This document shows, piece by piece, positions 3,352-46,154 of a stretch of 46,154 nucleotides of DNA (positions are counted from its first letter, which is position 1; each line of letters begins with the position of its first letter). The translations under genes and the position numbers were made by a program. Source of the DNA: Frankiaceae bacterium (GTDB taxonomy: Bacteria > Actinomycetota > Actinomycetes > JAFAQI01); contig JAFAZI010000161.1 in assembly GCA_019239875.1 (NCBI GenBank), positions 1 through 46,154 on the forward strand, in the 5' to 3' direction. The notes under the pieces are model-generated. The model did not search any database and was not told the DNA's origin. It saw only the letters and a list, made by a program, of their open reading frames with translations.

Positions 3352-4797
3352 TCAGAGCGCGTGCAAGGTGAGCGGGAGCCCGTCGGCCGGCATGGGAAGT
3401 GACACGAGATCCCACGGCACGACGTATCCCGGCGGGGTGGTCCAGCGATAGGTCCGGAGGAGGTGATGCAGCAGCGTCTTGACCTCCTGGGTCCCGAAGT
3501 ACATCCCGATGCATTTGTGGGCGCCACCGCCGAATGGCACCCACGCGTATCGGTGGTTCTTGTCTTCGCGACGCGGCTCGGTGAACCGGTCTGGGTCGAA
3601 CGCGTACGGGTTGGTCCAGAACTCCGGCATGTAGTGGCTGAACCAGGGCGACACGGAGACCTGGGTACCGGCCGGGAGGAAGTGCCCGAGCAACTCGGTG
3701 TCCTTGATGGCTTTGCGTGGCAAGGACGGGACCGGCGCCACGAGTCGCAGCGACTCCTTGATCACGATGTCCAGCACGGTGAGCGAGTCCAGCGAGTCGA
3801 GCGTCAGATCACCGTCGATCGCCATCGACTGCTCGCGCGCTTTGTCCTGCCACTCCGGGTGGGCGGCGAGAGCTGCCAACACCGCGGATGTCGTGATCGT
3901 CGACGTGTCGTGAGCCGCCATCATCAGGAAGATCATGTGGCTGACGATGTCGTCGTCGGAGAACGCCTCCCCCGCCTCGGAGCGGACATGGCACAGCGTC
4001 GCGAACAGATCGTCACCATCGTTGGCCCGCTTCTCAGGGAGACGGGTCCGGAAGTACTGCTCGAGCACCTTCCGGCCTTCGAGCCCGCGGTGCCAGCGAC
4101 CGATCGGGAAGTCACGGCGCAACAGCGCCGTACCGGCTCGGACCGTGTCGATGAACGCGGTCTGGAGCCTTGCGTCGTCCTCGCCGACGGTGCTGCCCAT
4201 GAAGATGTCTGTCGCAATGTCCAGGGAGAGCCGCTTCAGCGTCGGGTAGGCATAAATCGTGCCGTTCGCCGGCCACCGCTTGAGATCGCCTTGGACCAGT
4301 TGGTCAGCCCGCTCGAGATAACCAGCGAGTCGCGTCCGCGTGAACGCTTCCTGCATGATCCGGCGGTGGTAGAGGTGTTCTTCGAAGTCGAGCAGCATCA
4401 GGCCGCGGTTGAAGAACGGGCCGATGAAGTAGTCCCATCCGGTCTGTGAGAACGCCTTGTCCTTGTTGGTGAAAACAGCTTGCGTCGCGTCCGGACCGAG
4501 CGCCATGACGAACTTGATGCCGAAGGCCTGCACCCATGACACCGCTCCCATGCGCTCCCACACGCGCTCCGACATCCCGAGGCCGTCGAAGATGATCTCC
4601 GCGGTTCGACCGAGCACCGGCATACCGCCGTAACCGGGAACGGCTTTGAGCCCTGAACCCGCTGGGACCGACGACAGCGGCCGGCTCTTGTAGGAGACCT
4701 TGTCCAGCACGCGTGCGAACGGGATGGCACCCGGCATCGCCGCCGGCCGGATCTTGTCCGGATGCTTCCAATCCGTCGCGACGGGGGCAAGCGTCAT
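3352..4797 (-). CDS. cytochrome P450, CYP136-like
   Basis: A 481-residue haem monooxygenase. Visible motifs are the I-helix AAHDTS (oxygen activation), the K-helix ExxR (ESLR) and the haem ligand loop FGGGAHKCIG with Cys at about residue 429. It is longer than typical soluble bacterial P450s. The stretches GPFFNRGLMLLDFEEH and HRRIMQEAF match what I remember of mycobacterial CYP136 proteins, a family without an assigned physiological substrate; that placement is from memory, not a search. The ATG at 4797 overlaps the TGA of the upstream hydroxylase-like gene (ATGA), indicating translational coupling. No ferredoxin or reductase gene is nearby, so electrons must come from proteins encoded elsewhere. 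Confidence 0.9.
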   Translation of the reverse strand: MTLAPVATDWKHPDKIRPAAMPGAIPFARVLDKVSYKSRPLSSVPAGSGLKAVPGYGGMPVLGRTAEIIFDGLGMSERVWERMGAVSWVQAFGIKFVMALGPDATQAVFTNKDKAFSQTGWDYFIGPFFNRGLMLLDFEEHLYHRRIMQEAFTRTRLAGYLERADQLVQGDLKRWPANGTIYAYPTLKRLSLDIATDIFMGSTVGEDDARLQTAFIDTVRAGTALLRRDFPIGRWHRGLEGRKVLEQYFRTRLPEKRANDGDDLFATLCHVRSEAGEAFSDDDIVSHMIFLMMAAHDTSTITTSAVLAALAAHPEWQDKAREQSMAIDGDLTLDSLDSLTVLDIVIKESLRLVAPVPSLPRKAIKDTELLGHFLPAGTQVSVSPWFSHYMPEFWTNPYAFDPDRFTEPRREDKNHRYAWVPFGGGAHKCIGMYFGTQEVKTLLHHLLRTYRWTTPPGYVVPWDLVSLPMPADGLPLTLHAL

Positions 4798-5498
4798 GAT
4801 GCGGGAACCTCGACTCCGAGAGTGAATGCGGTCGGTGACACCGGTACCGCGTCCTTCGCTGGGAAGGTCCGCAACACGTGATCGCCGACGTGAACCGTGA
4901 CCCCGAACCAGTAGTTCTCGTTGCGGAAGTGATGCAGACGATGCGCGCGCCAGATGTATCGGTAGTACGAACCGCGCGGCCGATAGTTGGAGTGGATCAG
5001 GAAGTGCACCCACTCGTAGCCGAGGAACATCGTGTACGACGTGAACATCCCTGAGAGCGCAAGCTGCCAGGTCGGCGTGATGAGCCAGTAGACGCCGACG
5101 TTCAGGAGCACCGACGCGACGATCACCTGGCGCGGCACGAGCACGAGGCCGAGCACCTTGGGGTCCGCGTGATGCTGCCGATGCCGACGCGACAACAGCG
5201 GGTCGATCAGCCGACCGCCAATCGATACCGGCTTGAAGTGCAGGACCGTGACGTGGATGACCCACTCGGTGAACGGCTGCGCCGAAAGGATGATTGCCGC
5301 GATCCCGAGATCCCACCACCCCCAGCCGCCCAGCGCGAGCCGAACGCCGCCGGACACCAGGACGGCGGGGAGTAGGAGCTTGGCGCTGAAGGTGTTGATG
5401 AAGATCCTTGCGGCCATCCGGAGGGTGAGGCCTGGCGCGGTGTAAGCATCGGGCTGCGCCTCGCGAAATCTCGCCGGCCGAACCTCGGTGACCGTCAC
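4794..5498 (-). CDS. fatty acid hydroxylase / sterol desaturase superfamily membrane protein
   Basis: Predicted di-iron integral membrane oxygenase of about 234 residues. The His clusters typical of the superfamily are present: HVTVLH, HRQHH, HFLIH and HRLHH, separated by hydrophobic segments (LLLPAVLVSG, IIVASVLLNVGVYWLI-like region). Substrates in this superfamily are fatty acids, sterols, carotenoids or ether lipids; the sequence does not choose among them. A GTG at 5498 is the first start after the upstream GH5 stop (5512) and leads into TVTEVRPARF; it has no convincing Shine-Dalgarno, so coupling to the GH5 gene is likely. Its stop overlaps the start of the CYP136-like gene by 4 nt. The pairing suggests two oxygenases acting on one lipid-like molecule (inference). 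Confidence 0.85.
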   Translation of the reverse strand: MTVTEVRPARFREAQPDAYTAPGLTLRMAARIFINTFSAKLLLPAVLVSGGVRLALGGWGWWDLGIAAIILSAQPFTEWVIHVTVLHFKPVSIGGRLIDPLLSRRHRQHHADPKVLGLVLVPRQVIVASVLLNVGVYWLITPTWQLALSGMFTSYTMFLGYEWVHFLIHSNYRPRGSYYRYIWRAHRLHHFRNENYWFGVTVHVGDHVLRTFPAKDAVPVSPTAFTLGVEVPAS

Positions 5499-5511
5499 GT
5501 CCGGGATTGTG

Positions 5512-6687
5512 TCACGCGCGGTGACGCTGACGGTCGGCAAGAAGTGCCGCGCGAACCCGGCTGCCGTACGGCGTCGTCGGATGACCGGCTCGGTTGGTGA
5601 TGAGCGCCCAGCAGTCGTGCCACGCGTTCCAGGTCCAGGCCGTCCAGCTGGCTCCGTGAGACCGTGCCCACGAGACCACCCCGGTGTCGAAGCCGGTCTT
5701 GCCGACGTAGCTCGACCGGCAATTCGAATCGAGCGCGGCCGAGTACCCCACGGTGAGGTCAGGTCCGAACTCGCCGATGTAGAGCGGCACGCGCCGGGCG
5801 ATGCGTGCCAGTTTCTTGGTGAAGCACCGCGGGCGGGTGCAGCCGTTGAATGAGTAGAGGTGCACCGAGGCGGCGAGATCGTGGCGGGGATCATGCGGCT
5901 TGTATGCCAGCCAGCGACCGAGATTCGCCGCGTAGTTGACGCCGCCAGCGATGACGACGTTGTGCGCACCCGCCGAGCGCACCGCATGGATCAACCGGTC
6001 CATCCCGATCGCTGTGTAGGTGCTGCCACCGTTCGCCGACTGCTGTCGACAGCCGCCGTCGCGCCAGCAGCGCCAAGCGGCACGGGTGTGCGCCTGGTTG
6101 TCCGGCCACGGCTCGTTGAACAGGTCGAACAGAACGGCCTTGTTGTCATGAAAGGCGGCAGCCACCTGGTGCCAGAACGGAATGCTGTGCGCGTCCGGCA
6201 TGGGCTCCTGGTTGTAGGACTTCTCATCACCGGGCGCTGACAGGTGCAGGTTCAGGATCACCGCGAGGCCGTGACGGGTGAGCGTCCGAACGTAGGCCTC
6301 GATCGTGTGCTGATAACGAACGCCGCCGTAGGCCGGCTTCACTCCGCCGATGCCGAGCCAACATTGCTCGTTGAGCTGAATCCGCACTGCGTTGACGCCG
6401 TGCCATCGCGTCATCGCGACCACGTCCGAGGTCGGCACCTTGGTGTTGACGTTGTCACCGATGTCGAAGATGCCCCAGCCTTCGATGCAGGCGTATTCCG
6501 CCCCGGAGTTGTTGAAACCAAGGAGTCGAACGCGCTGCCCGCGGCTGTTCACCAGGTGCCGACCGTGGACGTGCAGGCCGAGCGCGGGCTTGATCTTCGA
6601 CGCCGGCACAGCACGGATCGCCTGCGAGCCGGCTGACGGGAGGAGGCCCAGCACGCCGACCAGGAGACCGACGATCGCCCGGCGCAT
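5512..6687 (-). CDS. secreted glycoside hydrolase family 5 (cellulase-like)
   Basis: A 391-residue exported glycosidase. The N-terminus MRRAIVGLLVGVLGLLPSAG is a signal peptide. The mature protein shows the GH5 order: LLGFNNSG, then the acid/base Glu in DLFNEPWPD (about residue 192), HLYSF, and the nucleophile Glu in YIGEFGPD (about residue 306). The WTAWTWNAW strip near the C-terminus fits a substrate cleft. GH5 enzymes cleave beta-glucans, mannans and, in one subgroup, glycosylceramides; the target here is unclear. The ATG at 6687 shares one base with the upstream gene's TGA (TGATG), so translation is probably coupled. Several Cys (CIEGWG, CRQQ, CTRPRC) may form disulphides outside the cell. 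Confidence 0.9.
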   Translation of the reverse strand: MRRAIVGLLVGVLGLLPSAGSQAIRAVPASKIKPALGLHVHGRHLVNSRGQRVRLLGFNNSGAEYACIEGWGIFDIGDNVNTKVPTSDVVAMTRWHGVNAVRIQLNEQCWLGIGGVKPAYGGVRYQHTIEAYVRTLTRHGLAVILNLHLSAPGDEKSYNQEPMPDAHSIPFWHQVAAAFHDNKAVLFDLFNEPWPDNQAHTRAAWRCWRDGGCRQQSANGGSTYTAIGMDRLIHAVRSAGAHNVVIAGGVNYAANLGRWLAYKPHDPRHDLAASVHLYSFNGCTRPRCFTKKLARIARRVPLYIGEFGPDLTVGYSAALDSNCRSSYVGKTGFDTGVVSWARSHGASWTAWTWNAWHDCWALITNRAGHPTTPYGSRVRAALLADRQRHRA

Positions 6688-41933: not shown

Positions 41934-42389
41934 ATGCCGTGCCGCCCACGGGTTGCGAGTTCGGTGGAGCTGCTTAGTGCTTACTTGAACACCACGACCG
42001 AGCTCGAACAGGTCCTCGCCGCTCTCTCGGAACCTGTAGTGAGCTCGGGAAACGACGCAAGCGTTTCATCGCCCTCTCGCAAGACACGAGCTCGGCTACC
42101 GAGATCAATTGTCTCAAAGATGATCTTGGATTACCAGGCTGGCACCTCGAGCCGCGAGCTGGCGGCGAAGTACGACGTACCAAAGTCCTCGGTGCTCGTC
42201 CTGCTTCGGAACGAGGGGGTCGTGCGACCACCATCGCGCATCTCGGACGAGCTCATCGAACGAGCTGGCGAACTGATTCAGGATGGCAAATCGGTGGCGA
42301 TCGTCGCCGACGAACTTGAGGTCGCAGTGCGGTCGCTCTATCACCAGCTCAGGGTGCGAGGGCTACCGACGAGGGCGAGCAACGATTAG
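41934..42389 (+). CDS. helix-turn-helix protein, recombinase/transposase-type
   Basis: A protein of up to 151 residues, mostly two successive helix-turn-helix units. The first is IVSKMILDYQAGTSSRELAAKYDVPKSSVLVLLRNEGV; the second is ISDELIERAGELIQDGKSVAIVADELEVAVRSLYHQLRVRGL. The pattern is that of resolvase/Hin-type DNA-binding modules often found as short genes next to serine recombinases or in phage and plasmid remnants. No catalytic recombinase domain is present. The ATG at 41934 is the longest start; an internal start is possible, as no good ribosome-binding site is seen. It marks the left edge of the less GC-rich, mosaic end of the window and converges on the AAA-DUF4435 gene. Confidence 0.7.
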   Translation: MPCRPRVASSVELLSAYLNTTTELEQVLAALSEPVVSSGNDASVSSPSRKTRARLPRSIVSKMILDYQAGTSSRELAAKYDVPKSSVLVLLRNEGVVRPPSRISDELIERAGELIQDGKSVAIVADELEVAVRSLYHQLRVRGLPTRASND

Positions 42390-42430: not shown

Positions 42431-43573
42431 CTAGTTTGCCGGTGGCAAGTACGGCGTAAGTGCCGAGCGAATCGCAATAGACAGATCTGCGAGCGATGGG
42501 TCGTCTGCCGAGACGGCCTTGATCACGATGTCCGTGTATTTTCCGGCAACGACGCCCAGGTGCCCACTCACCACGCCTAAGAGTTGCTTGCCGGGCATTA
42601 GCTGCAGAATCTCGTCCAGATCTGGCGGATTTGATGAGAAGGCCGTCTCTACACGCAGTTTCTCATCCTGCAGCTGCTGCCGGAGATCGAAGTCCCAGGT
42701 GTGGGGGTTCAAGATGGTGGGGAGTGCCGCGACCAGACTGTCAAGCGACTCGGGCTTGGTGCTTACCGAGGCAACAACACCCACGACCAATGCCTCAGCG
42801 CGACACTTCCAACGTTCTAGCGTGACACGGTGTCGGTCGGCATCCTTATAGGCATTCACAATGACGGCCCGATACGCCGCGACATCGAAGGCTTGACCGA
42901 GATGCTTTGCCACAGCGCCTACGACTCCCGGCAAAGCGAACATTGTTTCGACCTCGTGGACGCCGACCGCGACCGCGCCATTGCTAAGCGCTCCAAGGCG
43001 TTCGTCGGAGTGATAGTCGCGATCGATGATGCCGATGACCTCGAGATTCGAAATCAGGTTTGACCTCTTCAGCGCCGAGACGCAGTGCAACACCGACTCG
43101 CACGAGCCAACCGGTCTCACCACCGTCGTCTGAGTATCGAACCATGCGCTGTACAAGCGCTTGTCCAATGAAGTCTCGTCGCCCTCACAAAAGACGATGC
43201 GCTTCGAGTAGAAGGACAGCGATGCTGTATCTAGTAGGAGCGCTGCGACCTGCCCGTCGTTGTCGAGGTCGACGGGGGTGAGGCCATCCTTCGGATTCGC
43301 CAGCAAGTATTGCGCTCCGCGTCGGGAGGTCGCAAACATCATGTCGTGCGTGGAATAGATAATCCGCAGGTCCGGCCGAGCCGCCTCGATCGCGTTCCAA
43401 AACTCGATGGCCAACAGCGAGTGGAAGTGAGTCTCCGGCTCGTCGACAAGGAGGACCGCCTGAGGATCCGAGCTTAAGGCGCGACCAGCCAGGTACAGCG
43501 CCGCCTTCTCGCCGTCGCTCATCTGCCACGCGGAGTATTCGGCGGGCACACCGTCGCCTTGCACGGTATTCAT
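42431..43573 (-). CDS. AAA ATPase-DUF4435 (TOPRIM-like) protein, 5'-truncated
   Basis: The C-terminal 380 residues of an ABC/OLD-like ATPase fused to a DUF4435 domain. The ATPase part keeps the signature SDGEKAALYLAGRAL, Walker B AVLLVDEPETHFH and the switch His in YSTHDMMF, but the Walker A P-loop that must precede them is absent. The DUF4435 part shows the TOPRIM-like acidic residues FCEGDETSLDKR, IIDRDYHSDERLG and VHEVETMFALPG. ATPase plus DUF4435 is the composition of the PARIS anti-phage system (AriA/AriB; fused forms exist), so a defence origin is likely but unproven. The reading frame continues open to 43702 and still looks real at SLWSKFFPGRELTFKDYLPVV, so ATG 43573 is only the first start left. 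Without the P-loop it is probably dead. Confidence 0.75.
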   Translation of the reverse strand: MNTVQGDGVPAEYSAWQMSDGEKAALYLAGRALSSDPQAVLLVDEPETHFHSLLAIEFWNAIEAARPDLRIIYSTHDMMFATSRRGAQYLLANPKDGLTPVDLDNDGQVAALLLDTASLSFYSKRIVFCEGDETSLDKRLYSAWFDTQTTVVRPVGSCESVLHCVSALKRSNLISNLEVIGIIDRDYHSDERLGALSNGAVAVGVHEVETMFALPGVVGAVAKHLGQAFDVAAYRAVIVNAYKDADRHRVTLERWKCRAEALVVGVVASVSTKPESLDSLVAALPTILNPHTWDFDLRQQLQDEKLRVETAFSSNPPDLDEILQLMPGKQLLGVVSGHLGVVAGKYTDIVIKAVSADDPSLADLSIAIRSALTPYLPPAN

Positions 43574-43602
43574 GACGACCGGCAGGTAGTCCTTAAACGT
43601 GA

Positions 43603-43968
43603 GCTCGCGGCCGGGAAAGAACTTGGACCAGAGCGACGAGATCGTGCTGCTCCGGATGCGGCGAGAAGATTTCGACCCCCCTAAATCCCGCGCAGTGGAA
43701 GCTCACCTTCGACGGTGAGACGATCTCGCTGACGCCCTCTATCGGCAACTGGGACATCCCTTGCCGCTCGCACTACTGGATTCGCCGTAGCAATGTCGAG
43801 TGGGCCAAACTCTGGACGGACGAGGAGGTTGGGCGGGGCAGGCTGCGAGACCAGGACGATGCGATCAGACACTTTTCCTCTGACGCATCCGAGATACCGA
43901 TTGCAGCCCAGGGTAAAAGGACGGCCCCACGCTCGATTTGGCAACGCCTGTTCAAGCGTAACCACTAG
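43603..43968 (+). pseudogene. DUF6527-family metal-binding protein remnant (no start codon)
   Basis: A 121-codon open frame with no ATG, GTG or TTG near its beginning. From 43648 it reads CSGCGEKISTPLNPAQW, then LTFDGETISLTPSIGNWDI, CRSHYWIRRSNVEWAKLW, and ends SIWQRLFKRNH. The Cys/His pattern (CSGCG ... PC-SHYWI) and the SLTPSIGNW segment are the hallmarks of DUF6527, small proteins frequently encoded with bacterial ubiquitin-like (E1/E2) systems; this is recalled, not searched. Just upstream, a GTG-started frame (43599: VSSRPGKNLDQSDEIVLL) is one frameshift away and could be the displaced N-terminus. The gene overlaps head-to-head with the truncated AAA-DUF4435 frame. Confidence 0.65.
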
Positions 43969-44302
43969 CGGCCGATGCTCGCAAGCAAGGTGCGGTCATC
44001 CGTCCACTAGGCGGGTTGGCACAGCGTGTCGCCGACGACACCGCCGAGCCGCCGTCGGTGTGCCAGACGATGGTTCCGAACTTCACCTTCGCGGCATCGC
44101 TACCGCCCTGAGCCAGCAAGTTGTACGCCGTGCTGGAATCGCTGGCCGGCAACCGCACCGAATCACTGAATGCCGCCCCCGTGGCCCCCACGATCCCACC
44201 CAGCGCCATCAGCAGCGCGACCCACTCGACCACTACCAGGCCCTTGTGGCGGAAGCACCAACGACTCAGTGCAGGAGCTGTTCGTCTCGCGTCTGACGGC
44301 AC
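43952..44302 (-). pseudogene. MMPL/RND transporter N-terminal fragment
   Basis: A 116-codon frame starting at GTG 44302. Its first 75 or so residues match the beginning of an MMPL-family lipid/drug transporter: RHKGLVVVEWVALLMALGGIVGATGAAFSDSVRLPASDSSTAYNLL (first membrane helix and start of the first periplasmic loop), then KVKFGTIVWHTDGGSAV. After that the sequence turns into unrelated text (RCANPPSGRMTAPCLRAS) and stops. Full MMPL proteins exceed 700 residues, so at least nine tenths of the gene is missing. It is not functional and marks a deletion or recombination joint close to the 3' end of the DUF6527 remnant. Confidence 0.65.
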
Positions 44303-44418
44303 CTAGGCCGAGCTAGAAGGTACAGTCACCGCGCGACAGTGGCGGTCCCAAACTTGCCGCGGTGCTCAACAACGCGTAACAGCCAACTCGGCTCGGCCAC
44401 GTCGCTAGCCGCAATAGT

Positions 44419-44575
44419 TGGCAAGGAGTTCGTCGAGCTGCGCCGCAAAAACCGGTGCTGGAGATGGAGGTCGAGATCCTCAAGCGGGCCTCGGCCTACT
44501 TCGCTCGACAGAACATCGTCCCAAATAGGATTCCGGCTGGTCCATGAGCTCGCCGTTGACGGGCAGTGCCGGTAG
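44419..44575 (+). pseudogene. IS3-family transposase remnant (OrfA end / OrfB start)
   Basis: Degenerate IS3-type sequence spread over shifted frames. One frame gives GKEFVELRRKNR, the next LEMEVEILKRASAYFARQNIVP (the leucine-zipper end of OrfA), and the following GFRLVHELAVDGQC (beginning of OrfB) before a stop. It is too broken to encode a protein. It is a different IS3 relative from the element at the right edge, whose corresponding segment reads LEEDLEIAKKASIFFAGEL. Confidence 0.65.
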
Positions 44576-44590
44576 GTGACCGCTGGATCG

Positions 44591-44926
44591 TTAGGCGCCG
44601 TCATCGCCCGGTCGAGGTCCGTGAAAGCCCAGCATCCAGAAGGCTTCCCGATCGACGCCGGCCAGTTCGAGATCACGCCAATCCGTCACTTCGCTGTAGC
44701 TCCAAGATCCGCTATCGAGTCGCGTGATCTTTCCCACGACCCGGCCGACTCGGACTAACACTCCGTCTGGGTGCGGTGCCAGGTCCCAGAGCGTTTCTCG
44801 CAAGACGGTCGGCACCGCGAAAGGCTCTCGACCGGGCTCATGGACCGTCACGCTGTGTCGCTCATCCGCCGGTATCGAAAAATGATTTGGACCTGATGTC
44901 ACCGTCTTTGGCTCCTGCTGCGGCAT
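44591..44926 (-). CDS. hypothetical protein
   Basis: A 111-residue frame starting with ATG 44926. The sequence is protein-like, with beta-rich segments (VHEPGREPFAVPTVLRETLWDLAPHPDGVLVRVGRVVGKITRLDSGSWSY), an acidic C-terminal half (VTDWRDLELAGVDREAFWML) and a GPRPGDDGA tail. No signal peptide, membrane helix or known domain is recognised. It sits in the mosaic region between the IS3 remnant and a small membrane protein. Codon use is less GC-biased than in the core of the window, fitting foreign origin. Confidence 0.5.
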   Translation of the reverse strand: MPQQEPKTVTSGPNHFSIPADERHSVTVHEPGREPFAVPTVLRETLWDLAPHPDGVLVRVGRVVGKITRLDSGSWSYSEVTDWRDLELAGVDREAFWMLGFHGPRPGDDGA

Positions 44927-45058
44927 GCAATAACGCTACTTGCGCGCCATGAGCAGAGTTGATTTCGTCCGCATCGCGCAAACTGCTGTCAGATCGTCAG
45001 CCACTGCGCGGCTTATCAATCGCGACGCCGAGATTGATACACCACGTTTTGAGCGCTT

Positions 45059-45382
45059 CTAGGTTTCGGGGGGAAGATCCCGGCCTCTCCTGGCCAGCGG
45101 GTCCGTTACGCCAAGCGCGTCGAGAACACGACCTCGCGCTCGTCTTCCCCTTGCGTTGACGATCGCATTCGCAGCGACTGTTAGCACGATCAGCGTCAGG
45201 GCGAGCGCAATAGTCCAACCGTGCTCGTCGATGACGCCAAACCCGATGAGGCCCACAGTGGCGCCGGCGCTGGTCCCAAGTACGAACATCGACCAGGCTG
45301 CGATTCGCACGTGGGCGAGCGCGCGGGCTGCATCAATCCCGAACCACCGTTGGTTGAACTGATTAAGTTGGTTGTCGCGCAT
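45059..45382 (-). CDS. small membrane protein, two predicted helices
   Basis: A 107-residue protein from ATG 45382, with a GGAG just upstream. After a polar N-terminus (MRDNQLNQFNQRWFGIDAAR) there are two hydrophobic helices (IAAWSMFVLGTSAGATVGLIGFGVI and TIALALTLIVLTVAANAIV), followed by a basic cytoplasmic-looking tail (NARGRRARGRVLDALGV). No family is recognised. The left end of the IS3-type element lies about 14 bp upstream of its start codon, so its own promoter has probably been displaced or replaced by sequence within the element. Confidence 0.6.
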   Translation of the reverse strand: MRDNQLNQFNQRWFGIDAARALAHVRIAAWSMFVLGTSAGATVGLIGFGVIDEHGWTIALALTLIVLTVAANAIVNARGRRARGRVLDALGVTDPLARRGRDLPPET

Positions 45383-45467
45383 CGCTCCGTTGCTCTGTCA
45401 CGGGTTGGGGTGGCTGAACCGGCGCGGAATCTCCGCCGCCTCCTTGTGAGTGCAGGAGGATGGCGCG

Positions 45468-45779
45468 ATGCCGAAGAAGATCGATCCCGCTGTGAAGGAG
45501 CGGGCGGTGAGGCTGGTGTTGGAGCATCAGGGCGAGTACCCGTCGTTGTTCGCCGCGGTCACCTCGGTCGCTAAGCAGCAGCGGCTGGGAGTGGAGAGCC
45601 TGCGTCGGTGGGTGAATCAGGCGCTGGTCGATGGTGGTGAGCGCCGCGGCGCGACGACCGAGGAGCTCGCGGAGATCAAGGAGCTGAAGGCGAAGGTCCG
45701 GCGGCTCGAGGAGGATCTTGAGATCGCGAAGAAGGCCTCGATTTTCTTCGCGGGGGAACTCGACCCCCGCGGCCGTTGA
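45468..45779 (+). CDS. IS3-family transposase OrfA
   Basis: A 103-residue DNA-binding subunit of an IS3-type transposase. ATG 45468 has GGAGG 8 nt upstream. It begins MPKKIDPAVKERAVRLVLEHQGEYPSLFAAVTSVAKQQRLGVESLRRWVNQ (helix-turn-helix) and ends with the heptad helix AEIKELKAKVRRLEEDLEIAKKASIFF, as expected for OrfA multimerisation. A run of five C (45764-45768) near its end is a plausible -1 slippage point into OrfB, giving FFAGELDP then PRPLIVGFID. The protein itself looks intact. Confidence 0.9.
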   Translation: MPKKIDPAVKERAVRLVLEHQGEYPSLFAAVTSVAKQQRLGVESLRRWVNQALVDGGERRGATTEELAEIKELKAKVRRLEEDLEIAKKASIFFAGELDPRGR

Positions 45780-46154
45780 TCGTGGGGTTCATCGACTCCA
45801 TGCGCAGCGACGGTCACGCGGTCGAGTCGACCTGCGCCGTGCTCACCGAGCTCGGCTGCCCGGTCGCCGCGCGGACCTACCGGGAGTGGAAAACCAAACC
45901 CCCGGCAGCCCGCACGATCAGCCAGGCGCAGGTCGTCGACGCGGTCCGTGACGTCTGCTGGACGGTCGGGGATGACGGGGTGCGCCGGCTCACCCCGGAC
46001 GGGCCGCACGTCGCGACCGGGTGTGTCCGAGACAGCAGTGGTCGGTGCGATGAAAGTCCTGGGCCATCAAGGGATCCGCCGCGCCAAGAGCCATCGCACG
46101 ACGATCCCGGCCAAGGACGGGATCCGGGCTGGGGACCTACTCAACCGGGACTTC
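45767..46154 (+). pseudogene. IS3-family transposase OrfB, internally deleted, cut by window end
   Basis: The -1 frame reads PRPLIVGFIDSMRSDGHAV, then CAVLTELGCPVAARTYREW and VVDAVRDVCWTVGDDGVRRLTPDG, the normal start of an IS3 OrfB. After about 46005 this frame degenerates. The authentic continuation (VSETAVVGAMKVLGHQGIRR, then RTTIPAKDGIRAGDLLNRDF) resumes in another frame from about 46025. The conserved segment expected between them (LYGRRKM-type sequence) is missing, so a small deletion with frameshift has occurred. The DDE catalytic part would lie beyond the window. Confidence 0.75.

What the first reader, a model, noticed from the sequence alone, without database searches (positions are those of the whole stretch)
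43574..43703. Two defence-like genes truncated head-to-head at one breakpoint
On the minus strand the AAA-DUF4435 frame is convincing up to about 43630 and lacks its P-loop beyond. On the plus strand DUF6527 homology begins at about 43648 without a start codon. Both genes have lost their 5' ends at the same point, as if a segment carrying both N-termini and the intervening genes was deleted. A frameshifted DUF6527 N-terminal scrap (EIVLL) may remain at 43599-43645.
Basis: partly seen in the sequence, partly recalled or inferred. Interest (0 to 1): 0.62.

Follow-up and report, generated by a model that had tools for sequence, protein, structure and literature searches.

The report
Two decapitated defence-type genes, one junction
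Two oppositely oriented bacterial genes, one a phage-defence gene of the PARIS type and one from a bacterial ubiquitin-like operon, have both lost their beginnings at the same spot; this is a recent DNA-loss scar in a decaying island rather than a new system.

Summary
On the minus strand, 42434 to about 43642 is a fused PARIS AriAB gene (PADLOC AriAB, 1.3e-51) without its first ~135 codons, including the P-loop. On the plus strand, about 43642 to 43965 is a DUF6527 gene (PF20137, 1.7e-23) without its first ~36 codons and with no ATG, GTG or TTG start. The two homologies meet within about 10 bp. Twelve close AriAB relatives all extend further upstream, so ATG 43573 is not a natural start. Intact DUF6527 genes end multiubiquitin, DUF6791-ThiF, DUF6527 operons. 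Neither the AriAB N-terminus nor multiubiquitin or ThiF was found elsewhere in the 4.15 Mb genome, which favours loss over inversion or a mis-join. The open remnants limit neutral decay to about 5% divergence. Not supported: the 'EIVLL' scrap (antisense to conserved AriAB codons, no better than chance) and an original divergent neighbourhood: none of 80 AriAB loci carries the ubiquitin-like genes within up to 9 kb, none of 9 DUF6527 loci has AriAB, and no listed plasmid carries both. This is ordinary decay in a lower-GC, IS3-littered island. The missing step is read support for the junction.

The parts
42431..43642 (-). 5'-truncated fused PARIS gene ariAB (AAA ATPase plus DUF4435/Toprim-like). 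Keeps the MSDGEK signature, Walker B LLVDEPE, the Toprim-like FCEGDE and DRD, and the stop codon; lacks the P-loop.
   Evidence: PADLOC PDLC02982 AriAB E 1.3e-51 and 9.8e-51 in the whole genome; 59% identity to L022, starting at this codon; intact homologues carry GPNGSGKT/S about 120 aa upstream
43639..43648 (.). Junction of the two remnants. The exact base is uncertain because no parent sequence is known.
   Evidence: End of AriAB identity at 43642; start of DUF6527 homology at 43642-43645, with the invariant His before it absent
43642..43968 (+). 5'-truncated DUF6527 gene, 108 codons plus stop. Keeps the putative metal ligands C43645, C43657, C43762 and H43771; has no ordinary start codon.
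   Evidence: PF20137 E 1.7e-23, profile 5-63/63; alignment to eight homologues; no ATG/GTG/TTG in frame
43571..43573 (-). ATG at which the longest listed ORF of the AriAB remnant begins; an internal codon in homologues, so not a natural start.
   Evidence: ORF list; alignment
44426..44573 (+). Frameshifted IS3-family transposase fragment in the same decayed island (context, not part of the junction).
   Evidence: 79-83% DNA identity to plasmid sequences, three of them annotated as IS3-family transposase
45450..46154 (+). IS3-type element with an intact orfA and a 35-bp gap in orfB relative to the other copy; cut off by the contig end (context).
   Evidence: HTH_Tnp_1 in orfA; second copy on contig C49, 92% identity

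Best explanation
This is a recent loss of DNA in a horizontally acquired island. A fused PARIS gene (ariAB, minus strand) and the last gene, DUF6527, of a multiubiquitin, DUF6791-ThiF, DUF6527 operon (plus strand) were joined head to head at about 43642. The join removed the first ~135 codons of ariAB with its P-loop and promoter, the first ~36 codons of DUF6527 and, if the operon was once complete here, the multiubiquitin and ThiF genes. Both remnants are inferred to be dead: the AriAB remnant has no P-loop to bind ATP, and the DUF6527 remnant has no ordinary start codon and no partner genes. A one-step deletion between two divergent genes is the simplest mechanism. Shown: the truncations, their coincidence and the failure to find the missing parts in the genome. 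Inferred: a single event, and that the genes lay next to each other beforehand.
For: Both homologies stop within about 10 bp of each other. Twelve AriAB relatives read residue by residue have N-terminal extensions; 10 of the 12, plus L022 on reading its full frame, show a P-loop. DUF6527 sits third after multiubiquitin and ThiF in annotated intact loci (and by Pfam), and ThiF precedes it in five further genome loci. The genome (completeness 100 as listed) shows no second AriAB N-terminus, no specific ThiF and no multiubiquitin above cut-off. Both remnants have similar GC, 59-60% against 66.8% for the contig. IS3 debris lies nearby. No stop or frameshift has arisen in 511 codons, which bounds neutral divergence since the event at about 5%.
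Against: No genome was found in which the two systems are neighbours, so the single-deletion step has no parental locus behind it. The draft assembly (206 contigs) could not be checked against reads.
Confidence: 0.72

Rival explanations
1. Two fragments that were never neighbours were joined when DNA was acquired or rearranged (illegitimate recombination, or insertion of a piece of the multiubiquitin operon into ariAB, followed by loss of the other half).
For: The two families are not neighbours in 80 AriAB loci, 9 DUF6527 loci or the plasmids listed; IS3 fragments show that the island has been rearranged.
Against: It needs more steps: the displaced AriAB N-terminus is not found anywhere in the genome. 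The two remnants share an atypical GC content.
Confidence: 0.2
2. Assembly artefact: a chimeric contig joins two loci that are separate in the cell.
For: Draft assembly of 206 contigs; no reads are available here; an exact search for the junction found no copy in viral contigs.
Against: If the true loci were elsewhere, their other halves should be in the assembly, and neither the AriAB N-terminus nor ThiF nor multiubiquitin is. The repeat finder shows no repeat at the junction that would mislead an assembler.
Confidence: 0.06
3. Sequencing errors or a natural short form: either frame is really intact.
For: The remaining frames are clean, without stops or frameshifts.
Against: Every close AriAB homologue read is longer. 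The 5' parts are missing rather than shifted: DUF6527 leaders do not match any frame upstream, and the AriAB N-terminus matches no frame to the right, better than chance.
Confidence: 0.02

Closest known systems
PARIS, single-gene AriAB fusion (AAA_21/AAA_15 plus DUF4435)
   Same: Profile match over positions 178-565 of 570; signature, Walker B and Toprim-like residues kept. The single-gene fusion form is published (PMC9122126).
   Different: N-terminal ~135-180 residues with the P-loop absent; the Pfam DUF4435 model itself does not score at E<=1, only PADLOC's AriAB and AriB models do.
Multiubiquitin, DUF6791-ThiF, DUF6527 operon (probably class 6e, polyUbl, of Iyer, Burroughs and Aravind 2006, PMC1779556)
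   Same: The remnant is the small putative metal-binding last gene; C-x3-C-x34-C-x2-H kept.
   Different: Multiubiquitin and ThiF are absent from the locus and were not found in the genome; DUF6527 lacks its first ~36 residues. The published signature is written C-x3-C-x(35-38)-H-x2-C, so identity with the metal-binding protein of that paper is likely but not proven.
Defence-island pseudogenes and deletion scars near IS elements
   Same: Truncated genes, lower GC, IS3 fragments and low coding density around.
   Different: Two unrelated genes are cut head to head at one base-level junction rather than separately.

Membership tests
PARIS AriAB fusion | AAA ATPase C-terminal half with signature and Walker B | tested here: met
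   AAA_21 E 2.8e-10; MSDGEK and LLVDEPE conserved
PARIS AriAB fusion | P-loop (Walker A) at the N-terminus | tested here: not met
   Absent from the gene and from the right-hand flank; present in intact homologues
PARIS AriAB fusion | Fused DUF4435/Toprim effector domain | tested here: met
   PADLOC AriB E 1.3e-6 and AriAB over the whole C-terminus; Pfam DUF4435 not reported at E<=1
PARIS AriAB fusion | Anti-phage activity triggered by an anti-restriction protein | not testable with these tools
   Needs experiment; not expected without a P-loop
DUF6527 (PF20137) | Profile match above gathering score | tested here: met
   82.7 bits against a cut-off of 23.6
DUF6527 (PF20137) | Complete gene with N-terminal ~36 residues and start codon | tested here: not met
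   Leader absent; no ATG/GTG/TTG in frame
Multiubiquitin-ThiF-DUF6527 operon | Multiubiquitin and DUF6791-ThiF genes directly upstream | tested here: not met
   AriAB lies there instead; no specific ThiF match and no multiubiquitin above cut-off in the genome

The most novel reading that the evidence does not exclude
The scar records a lost composite island in which a PARIS fusion and a multiubiquitin-type conjugation operon were divergently paired and perhaps shared a promoter region, a pairing not seen in the loci examined here.
Probability: 0.1. Interest if true: 0.4.

Novelty: new member of a known kind. Interest (0 to 1): 0.17.

Why it matters
Mainly an annotation point. An automatic annotator would call the 380-aa ORF an AAA or DUF4435 defence protein and might count a PARIS system that is very probably not functional. 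If a relative with the intact arrangement exists, it would suggest a link between PARIS and a bacterial ubiquitin-like pathway. As it stands, it is an example of turnover of defence-type genes.

Tried and rejected
(1) The frameshifted DUF6527 scrap 'EIVLL': leader peptides score no better than chance, and the bases are conserved AriAB codons in antisense. (2) An AriAB N-terminus to the right of the junction: 26-93% of random segments score as well. (3) Inversion: it should leave the N-terminal halves elsewhere; none found. (4) ATG 43573 as a natural start: it aligns to an internal codon and the bases before it show no obvious ribosome-binding site. (5) Repeat-mediated join: the repeat finder lists no repeat at the junction, though the lost parent ends cannot be examined. 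(6) Searches that gave nothing: AriAB in viral contigs, the junction 29-mer in viral contigs, tRNAs, Rfam, and PDB (one search gave only an ABC ATPase stretch and a chance antibody match; none). (7) Papers naming DUF6527: none surfaced in the list shown.

Full report
What was checked. The finding says that an AAA-DUF4435 gene on the minus strand and a DUF6527 gene on the plus strand are both cut at their 5' ends at one point near 43630-43648. I translated the region in all frames, scanned Pfam, PADLOC and NCBIfam, and collected homologues from plasmids, GTDB genomes and relatives of the source genome.

The minus-strand gene. The frame 42434-43702 matches PADLOC's AriAB profile at 1.3e-51, positions 182-565 of 570; a whole-genome search starts the match at 43654, profile position 178. 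It is therefore the C-terminal part of a fused PARIS gene, a form described in PMC9122126. The closest homologue found, L022, is 59% identical over 401 residues, and the alignment begins exactly at the Ile codon 43640-43642. L022, L023 and L024 carry about 130-140 further residues, including GPNGSGKS/T. Of the twelve close relatives aligned, all extend upstream of the truncation point; in the alignment ten show the P-loop, L022 shows it when its full frame is read, and only the open frame of L033 seems to start late. The remnant keeps the ABC-type signature, Walker B and the Toprim-like acidic residues, but not the P-loop.

The plus-strand gene. Positions 43603-43965 match PF20137 from profile position 5 to 63 of 63 (82.7 bits, cut-off 23.6). 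Three full-length relatives are 133, 141 and 145 aa, with a leader of about 36 residues. In the alignment, the invariant His just before the CxCGC cluster is Arg in the window, so true homology starts at 43642-43645. The four putative metal ligands (C-x3-C-x34-C-x2-H) are kept. The frame contains no ATG, GTG or TTG, so an ordinary start is lacking. In annotated intact loci the gene follows multiubiquitin and DUF6791-ThiF (Pfam on the Arthrobacter and Agrobacterium loci), and ThiF also precedes it in five further genome loci. This matches the polyUbl operon class of Iyer, Burroughs and Aravind 2006, which includes a small predicted metal-binding protein (PMC1779556); the printed order of the last two ligands there differs, so the identity is likely, not proven. 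I found no direct evidence here that this operon is a defence system, so 'defence-like' is an inference for DUF6527.

The junction. AriAB identity ends at 43642 and DUF6527 homology begins at 43642-43645, so the two remnants abut with essentially no spare DNA. DUF6527 leader peptides do not match any frame of 43300-43660 above chance, and AriAB N-termini do not match any frame of 43640-46154 above chance.

Are the missing parts elsewhere? Not found: the AriAB profile gives only the window copy and a weak ATPase hit; the multiubiquitin-type ThiF gives E 0.19 at best; Multi_ubiq gives nothing above cut-off. The genome is listed as 100% complete, so an inversion with a reciprocal junction, or a mis-join of two held loci, is unlikely.

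Were they neighbours? Not in anything examined. None of the 80 AriAB loci (up to 9 kb each side where the contig allows) holds DUF6527, ThiF or multiubiquitin. None of nine DUF6527 loci holds AriAB. The 30 plasmids with AriAB and the DUF6527 plasmids listed (not all 111 were listed) share no accession. The single-deletion step is thus the simplest reading but has no parental locus behind it.

Age and setting. In 511 codons no stop or frameshift has appeared; from the sequence's own codons, neutral divergence since the event is below about 5% (95% bound; this assumes no selection after truncation). Both remnants have 59-60% GC against 66.8% for the contig. A frameshifted IS3 piece lies at 44426-44573 and an IS3-type element with a damaged orfB runs off the contig end, with a 92% copy on contig C49. 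This is the usual picture of a decaying acquired island.

Verdict. It is ordinary defence-gene turnover.

Noticed in passing
window 45450-46154 and G000 contig C49:22067-22834: IS3-type element: the window copy has an intact orfA but a 35-bp gap in orfB relative to the C49 copy (92% identity), while the C49 copy has two 1-bp gaps within orfA, so neither copy looks complete as aligned.
   Followed up: partly
window 44426-44573: Frameshifted fragment of another IS3-family transposase, 79-83% identical in DNA to Cellulomonas, Cnuibacter and Iamia plasmid sequences; no second copy found in this genome.
   Followed up: partly
window 41934-42389: Small gene with resolvase-type helix-turn-helix (HTH_7 E 7e-5, just under cut-off) directly left of the AriAB remnant; possibly an island recombinase or regulator remnant.
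   Followed up: no
window 43952-44302, minus strand: ORF with a short hydrophobic N-terminal segment reminiscent of pilin or TadE-like proteins, overlapping the end of the DUF6527 remnant; no Pfam match.
   Followed up: partly
L018 (Rothia terrae plasmid) 4449-6094: The AriAB-like reading is split over two adjacent annotated genes (AAA family ATPase and hypothetical protein), either a two-gene form or another broken copy.
   Followed up: no
DUF6527 alignments (L015-L017, L106-L110): DUF6527 carries a conserved C-x3-C-x33/34-C-x2-H pattern in the homologues aligned, which suggests a metal-binding role as the third member of the multiubiquitin-ThiF operon; no solved structure matched by sequence.
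   Followed up: partly
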